A stretch of 64,000 nt of DNA from positions 1 through 64,000 of the forward strand of contig JAEHKU010000004.1 in NCBI GenBank assembly GCA_016838825.1, written 5' to 3'. Both the position numbers and the translations under genes were made by a program. Under the pieces are notes generated by a model. It was not told the DNA's origin. It searched no databases and saw nothing but the letters and a program-made list of their open reading frames with translations. Positions 42,962-43,137 of the stretch are shown here, piece by piece (position 1 is the first letter of the stretch; the number at the start of each line of letters is the position of its first letter). This DNA comes from Nitrosopumilales archaeon (GTDB lineage: Archaea > Thermoproteota > Nitrososphaeria > Nitrososphaerales > Nitrosopumilaceae).

Positions 42962-43048
42962 TAGACTAGTTTTAAATGAAGAAAAAACTGATTTCTAAAT
43001 TACGTGAATAACATTATAAAGGAACTGAAATAAAATTCATCGCCCGGC

Positions 43049-43137
43049 AGCCCGGTAGAGAAAAAATCACCGAATGTAGCGGTCAAGCATGGGGGCCTTT
43101 GGAGCCCTTGACCCCAGTTCGAATCTGGGCCGGGCTA
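43049..43137 (+). tRNA. tRNA-Gln (TTG) with a 16-nt noncanonical intron in the D-arm
   Basis: Mature acceptor AGCCCGG/CCGGGCT with discriminator A; anticodon stem GGGGC/GCCCT around CTTTGGA (anticodon TTG); T-arm CCCAG TTCGAAT CTGGG. Between positions 10 and 11 lies an insertion at 43059-43074 (AGAAAAAATCACCGAA). It folds as a bulge-helix-bulge: central helix CGGT/ACCG, 5' bulge AGA, 3' bulge AAT, cuts AG^A and AA^T. Splicing gives CGGTAG-TGTAGCGG, the standard D-arm. Confidence 0.93.

What the first reader, a model, noticed from the sequence alone, without database searches (positions are those of the whole stretch)
43049..43137. 16-nt bulge-helix-bulge intron in the D-arm of tRNA-Gln(TTG)
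The D-arm is interrupted at position 10/11 by 16 bases that form CGGT/ACCG with three-base bulges AGA and AAT. Cutting at the usual bulge sites restores a standard tRNA-Gln. Noncanonical positions of this kind need a broad-specificity splicing endonuclease, and so short an intron is unusual.
Basis: seen in the sequence. Interest (0 to 1): 0.7.

Follow-up and report, generated by a model that had tools for sequence, protein, structure and literature searches.

The report
tRNA intron with spare acceptor strand
A tiny intron in an archaeal glutamine tRNA gene is real, and throughout its lineage it travels with a short copy of the tRNA's own first bases placed just upstream; that copy probably stands in for the real strand while the intron is cut out, an arrangement I found no earlier description of.

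Summary
The intron is real. tRNA-Gln(TTG) at 43049-43137 (+) carries 16 nt (43059-43074) between positions 10 and 11. Intronless relatives match the predicted spliced product, and no second tRNA-Gln(TTG) was found in the assembly. The intron itself is an ordinary archaeal BHB intron, and 15-20 nt is the usual length for it.

The BHB central helix (CGGU:ACCG) uses tRNA positions 5-8, so it competes with the acceptor stem. Just upstream, at 43042-43047, lies a copy of acceptor positions 2-7 (GCCCGG), able to pair with the 3' acceptor strand. In Nitrososphaeria this leader copy accompanies 47 of 48 tRNA-Gln genes with the intron and 4 of 68 without. It also occurs in all 19 genes found across the phylum by a pattern that did not ask for it. 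Leader, acceptor and intron changed together in one genus. In folding models the mean probability of the BHB helix is 0.62 with the native leader, 0.02 without it and 0.11 with leaders from intronless genes.

Best explanation: the leader is a surrogate acceptor strand that frees the real one for splicing, so the intron leaves before the leader. No RNA evidence was available.

The parts
43015..43020 (+). TATA-like promoter element (TATAAA, followed by GG at 43021-43022)
   Evidence: In family f1 the GG of this element lies 26-30 nt before tRNA position 1 in intron-containing genes and 22-26 nt in intronless genes. Promoter role inferred.
43042..43047 (+). Leader copy of acceptor positions 2-7 (GCCCGG): proposed surrogate acceptor strand pairing with 43130-43135
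   Evidence: Present in 47/48 intron-containing and 4/68 intronless orthologues; in all 19 phylum-wide genes found without asking for it; paired with the 3' strand in the unconstrained fold of this precursor.
43049..43058 (+). Exon 1 of tRNA-Gln(TTG), positions 1-10 (AGCCCGGTAG)
   Evidence: same in intronless relatives.
43053..43056 (+). 5' strand of BHB central helix (CGGU, tRNA positions 5-8)
   Evidence: 4 bp in all 56 distinct relatives, 100% of cells paired.
43059..43074 (+). Intron, 16 nt, between positions 10 and 11
   Evidence: intron-containing and intronless relatives.
43060..43068 (+). Inner intron hairpin GA-AAAAA-TC (2 bp here; 3 or more in most relatives)
   Evidence: Compensatory changes at all three counted pairs.
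43069..43072 (+). 3' strand of BHB central helix (ACCG; RCCG in relatives, GCGG in genus g35)
43075..43137 (+). Exon 2 of tRNA-Gln(TTG), positions 11-73; CCA not encoded
43130..43136 (+). 3' acceptor strand CCGGGCT, pairing either with exon 1 (mature) or with the leader copy (precursor)

Best explanation
This is a genuine tRNA-Gln(UUG) gene with an archaeal BHB intron at 10/11 whose 5' leader carries a spare copy of the acceptor's 5' strand. In the precursor the leader GCCCGG pairs with the 3' acceptor strand CCGGGC. That leaves the real 5' strand free, and its CGGU (positions 5-8) pairs with the intron's ACCG to form the bulge-helix-bulge. The two-subunit splicing endonuclease cuts in both bulges (AG^A and AA^T) and the exons are ligated. 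With the intron gone, the real 5' strand displaces the leader, the normal acceptor and D stems form, and RNase P removes the leader. Shown: sequence, co-occurrence, pairing capacity and its conservation, thermodynamic effect of the leader in silico, presence of endonuclease genes. Inferred: actual splicing, the strand exchange, and that splicing precedes 5' trimming.
For: (1) Co-occurrence: objective rule (6/6 pairs, at least 5 Watson-Crick, within 25 nt upstream) met in 47/48 intron-containing and 4/68 intronless genes, Fisher p 1e-26 without correction for kinship; shuffled leaders meet it 1.4% of the time. On an EF-2 tree six supported independent pairs differ in intron state; the leader follows in five, never opposes, and does not differ in one (sign test p 0.0625; tree). 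(2) Of genes found by a pattern that does not include the leader, in 398 genomes of the phylum, all 19 have the copy, including genes with a 10-14 nt spacer. (3) Among 56 distinct genes leader positions 2-7 pair in 99.7% of cells, while adjacent position 1 varies freely; 11 of the 12 departures from the acceptor sequence are C-to-U, which keep pairing as G-U. (4) In genus g35 the acceptor is AGCCCCG and the leader AGCCCCG, with intron GCGG instead of RCCG. (5) The unconstrained minimum-energy fold of the window's precursor is this conformer; without leader it is not. Mean probability of the BHB central helix over 47 genes: 0.62 native leader, 0.02 no leader, 0.13 scrambled, 0.11 leaders of intronless genes. 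(6) In family f1 the TATA-like element lies about 4 nt further upstream in intron-containing genes. (7) Other tRNAs of this genome, including tRNA-Gln(CTG) with introns elsewhere, show no such copy on inspection, nor do the other tRNAs found in a Bathyarchaeota genome.
Against: No RNA data. Only one clear two-sided compensatory event in the leader helix (genus g35). G006 has a degraded copy (5 of 6) yet keeps the intron. In some genes (e.g. L048, L078, L083) the model does not favour the BHB conformer even with the leader. After splicing the model often still prefers leader pairing (mean 0.54 against 0.38), so the return step is not explained by secondary structure alone. The predicted start site is close to the copy, so a start downstream of 43042 would truncate it. 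The outer BHB helix is weak, so the motif is of the relaxed kind. In Methanopyrus 5' trimming precedes intron removal (PMC3695527), the opposite of what is proposed.
Confidence: 0.75

Rival explanations
1. Ordinary noncanonical intron; the upstream copy has no role in splicing and is a promoter or initiator element, or a sequence kept by descent.
For: A TATA-like element sits at the right distance for initiation at or near the copy. All intron-containing genes may descend from one ancestor.
Against: Intronless orthologues with the same kind of promoter lack the copy. The copy changes with the acceptor in g35 and keeps pairing with the 3' strand almost only through C-to-U changes. It also lies further upstream in Bathyarchaeia-like genes and G117, where its position relative to a start site must differ.
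Confidence: 0.13
2. The leader copy is the real 5' acceptor strand and the second copy belongs to an intron.
For: Excision between the direct repeats would give nearly the same product.
Against: Leader base 1 is C or U in 24 of 56 genes and could not pair with U72; leaders with G-U pairs would give a weaker mature stem; the leader lies at variable distance (0-13 nt) while the second copy is always followed by T[A/G]G.
Confidence: 0.03
3. The leader helix blocks premature RNase P cleavage or otherwise times 5' processing, with BHB formation a side effect.
For: In bacteria, leader pairing that extends the acceptor stem inhibits a step of RNase P binding (abstract of PMC9433436); the model keeps much leader pairing after splicing.
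Against: Why intronless orthologues do not need it is unexplained unless it serves splicing. The two roles are compatible.
Confidence: 0.07
4. The gene is a pseudogene or the 16 nt is retained in the mature tRNA.
For: ARAGORN does not call the gene.
Against: Conserved gene in many genera; no second tRNA-Gln(TTG) found; spliced form equals intronless orthologues.
Confidence: 0.02

Closest known systems
Noncanonical BHB introns of archaeal tRNAs (Crenarchaeota, Thaumarchaeota; tRNAscan-SE 2.0 survey PMC8450103, review PMC4090602)
   Same: Short intron away from 37/38, 3-nt bulges around a 4-bp helix, two-subunit endonuclease lineage.
   Different: Those accounts describe exon-intron pairing; none of the passages I could read mentions a 5' leader copy of the acceptor strand.
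Split (trans-spliced) tRNA genes of Nanoarchaeum and others (PMC4090602, PMC3218864)
   Same: Sequence outside the mature tRNA pairs so that a BHB can form for the same endonuclease.
   Different: Here there is one transcript in cis; the leader pairs with the 3' acceptor strand, not with the other exon's trailer, and is not part of the BHB.
Bacterial pre-tRNAs whose 5' leader pairs with the 3' end (RNase P study PMC9433436, abstract only)
   Same: Leader extends or alters pairing at the acceptor end.
   Different: No intron and no replacement of the 5' acceptor strand.

Membership tests
Archaeal BHB tRNA intron | 4-bp central helix flanked by two 3-nt bulges on opposite strands | tested here: met
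   central helix paired in 100% of cells over 56 genes.
Archaeal BHB tRNA intron | Inner helix in the intron supported by covariation | tested here: met
   All three counted pairs show two-sided changes; only 2 bp in the window.
Archaeal BHB tRNA intron | Outer helix (strict hBHBh' form) | tested here: not met
   No stable outer helix in folds. Relaxed forms without one helix (hBH, HBh') are accepted in this family (PMC4090602), so membership stands in the relaxed form only.
Archaeal BHB tRNA intron | Removal restores a standard tRNA | tested here: met
   Product matches intronless orthologues.
Archaeal BHB tRNA intron | Genome encodes the splicing endonuclease, two-subunit type | tested here: met
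   Two PF01974/PF02778 proteins. One aligns to solved tRNA-splicing endonucleases with Y, H and K conserved; the other lacks the His.
Archaeal BHB tRNA intron | Cleaved in vivo at the bulges | not testable with these tools
   No RNA data held.
Split or permuted tRNA | Exons on separate transcripts or in reversed order | tested here: not met
   Both exons in order within 89 nt.

The most novel reading that the evidence does not exclude
The 5' leader of these tRNA-Gln genes is a dedicated surrogate acceptor strand: a strand-exchange switch, kept across Nitrososphaeria and Bathyarchaeia-like genomes, that makes intron removal possible and obliges splicing to precede RNase P trimming, the reverse of the order reported in Methanopyrus.
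Probability: 0.6. Interest if true: 0.78.

Novelty: new variant of a known kind. Interest (0 to 1): 0.66.

Why it matters
Introns in the body of a tRNA disrupt the fold that the processing enzymes read, and how such precursors present a BHB without losing the acceptor stem is seldom addressed. A leader that replaces the borrowed strand is a simple answer, gives a tRNA 5' leader a function in splicing, predicts a processing order, and can be used to recognise acceptor-competing introns in other genomes. It is testable with a short in vitro transcript and a recombinant two-subunit endonuclease.

Tried and rejected
Pseudogene or second gene copy: none found. Leader as the true 5' end: rejected on base 1 and spacing. 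Leader pairing with the real acceptor 5' strand (CCGG is self-complementary): rejected because the g35 leader and acceptor, both AGCCCCG, cannot pair that way. Leader pairing with the intron: would explain only CGG, not conserved positions 2-4. A second search for other acceptor variants in the phylum gave no further compensatory case and one chance hit. A generic TATA scorer gave no clear signal; an aligned TATA-GG element did. One gene (L106) was misparsed by script and corrected by hand. Seven literature searches found no description of such a leader copy; subscription papers and GtRNAdb were not readable.

Full report
WHAT IS THERE. The window lies in a 1.12-Mb, 68-contig archaeal genome. 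Relatives that share the gene belong to Nitrososphaeria (named matches include Nitrosocaldus schleperae, Nitrosothermus koennekii, a Nitrosotalea and a Cenarchaeum bin). At 43049-43137 (+) is a tRNA-Gln(TTG): exon 1 AGCCCGGTAG, a 16-nt insert AGAAAAAATCACCGAA, exon 2 TGTAGCGG...GGGCTA. ARAGORN misses it and Rfam matches only positions 9-63. Of 40 Rfam tRNA hits in the assembly no other is Gln(TTG); L069 is tRNA-Gln(CTG), miscalled Leu by ARAGORN, with introns elsewhere.

THE INTRON IS REAL. In 151 genomes of relatives the orthologue was recovered widely. Of 116 parsed genes, 48 carry an intron at the same point and 68 are intronless, most reading AGCCCGGTAG directly into TGTAG (one of the 48, L106, was misparsed and corrected by eye). 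Among 56 distinct intron-containing genes the length is 15-59 nt, mostly 15-20. Central helix pairs form in all; the inner intron helix shows two-sided changes at all three counted pairs. Two tRNA-intron endonuclease proteins are encoded: one aligns closely with solved archaeal enzymes and keeps Y, H and K, the other lacks the His.

THE OVERLOOKED FEATURE. The BHB central helix uses tRNA positions 5-8, of which 5-7 belong to the acceptor stem, so the two structures exclude each other. One nucleotide before the tRNA lies GCCCGG (43042-43047), a copy of acceptor positions 2-7. By a fixed rule it is present in 47/48 intron-containing genes and 4/68 intronless ones; shuffled leaders meet the rule in 1.4% of draws. 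The exceptions are G006 (5 of 6 pairs) and four intronless genes: two in a family with GC-rich leaders and two with one G-U pair at a different spacing.

INDEPENDENCE. On an EF-2 tree of 36 genomes the intron state changes at least seven times, six forced by well-supported branches. Six independent pairs were available: the leader goes the same way in five, never the other way, and does not differ in one (G006 against its intronless neighbour G015, whose leader GTTCGA may be a relic). The sign test alone is p 0.06, so kinship-corrected support is suggestive rather than decisive; within genus g38 one species has both features and the other neither. The first run of this test had the leader state set equal to the intron state and should not be used as evidence.

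WIDER RANGE. A genome-collection pattern that requires the leader gave 46 contigs, including five labelled Bathyarchaeota. A pattern that does not require it, over 398 genomes of the phylum, gave 19 genes in 14 genomes, all with the copy, at spacings up to about 14 nt, for both Gln anticodons.

PAIRING. Leader positions 2-7 pair with the 3' acceptor strand in 99.7% of cells over 56 genes; position 1, next to them, is A 25, C 15, T 9, G 7. Eleven of twelve differences from the acceptor are C-to-U, which keep the pair. In genus g35 acceptor, leader and intron changed together (AGCCCCG, AGCCCCG, GCGG). That case also excludes leader pairing with the acceptor's own 5' strand. It is a single event, so covariation evidence for the leader helix is thin by count. 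The counts were made on composites joined from the relevant pieces of each gene, not on full-length alignments, and the leader piece was chosen as the best-pairing 6-mer within 25 nt, so the 99.7% is partly selected; the intronless and shuffled controls show how little that choice alone gives.

FOLDING. The unconstrained fold of 43035-43137 is the surrogate conformer; without leader the acceptor pairs with itself and the BHB is lost. For the window the BHB costs 4.7 kcal/mol without leader and is favoured by 6.8 with it. Over 47 genes the mean probability of the central helix is 0.62 with native leader, 0.02 without, 0.13 scrambled, 0.11 with leaders from intronless genes. A few genes do not follow, and in spliced RNA the leader still competes, so displacement must be helped by the tRNA tertiary fold, modification or RNase P; this is not shown.

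TRANSCRIPT. In family f1 the GG of a TATA-like element lies at -26 to -30 in intron-containing genes and -22 to -26 in intronless ones, as expected if the transcript must include the copy. The predicted start is within a few bases of it; without 5'-end data it cannot be excluded that the copy is partly untranscribed.

PROCESSING ORDER. The model requires intron removal before leader removal. In Methanopyrus the reported order is the reverse (PMC3695527), which makes this a sharp test.

VERDICT. Ordinary intron, unusual leader. I found no earlier description in the papers I could search. I rate it a new variant of a known kind: a BHB intron with a surrogate acceptor strand, confidence 0.75.

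Noticed in passing
L069 (G000:C50:2165-2267): tRNA-Gln(CTG) of the same genome appears to carry introns at other points, is miscalled tRNA-Leu(aag) by ARAGORN, and has no leader copy.
   Followed up: partly
L157-L160, L164, L170, L171 (families f7, f12, f14): These tRNA-Gln genes carry a second short intron near positions 25/26 besides the 10/11 intron.
   Followed up: no
L092 (G015) against L078 (G006): Intronless G015 has leader GTTCGA next to acceptor AGCCCGA, possibly a relic of the copy; its EF-2 neighbour G006 keeps the intron with a degraded copy.
   Followed up: partly
L161 (G105, family f16): tRNA-Gln with a different insertion in the D loop and none at 10/11.
   Followed up: no
L021 and L030 (G000:C36:9873-9966 and C15:632-725): Two tRNA-Val(CAC) genes with nearly identical introns, both within about 700 bases of contig ends; may be two copies or an assembly or strain artefact.
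   Followed up: no
L208/L289 and L290 (G495, CP070749.1): Rfam finds only 24 tRNA hits in this Bathyarchaeota chromosome, many with long introns; two of them are tRNA-Gln genes with the 10/11 intron.
   Followed up: partly
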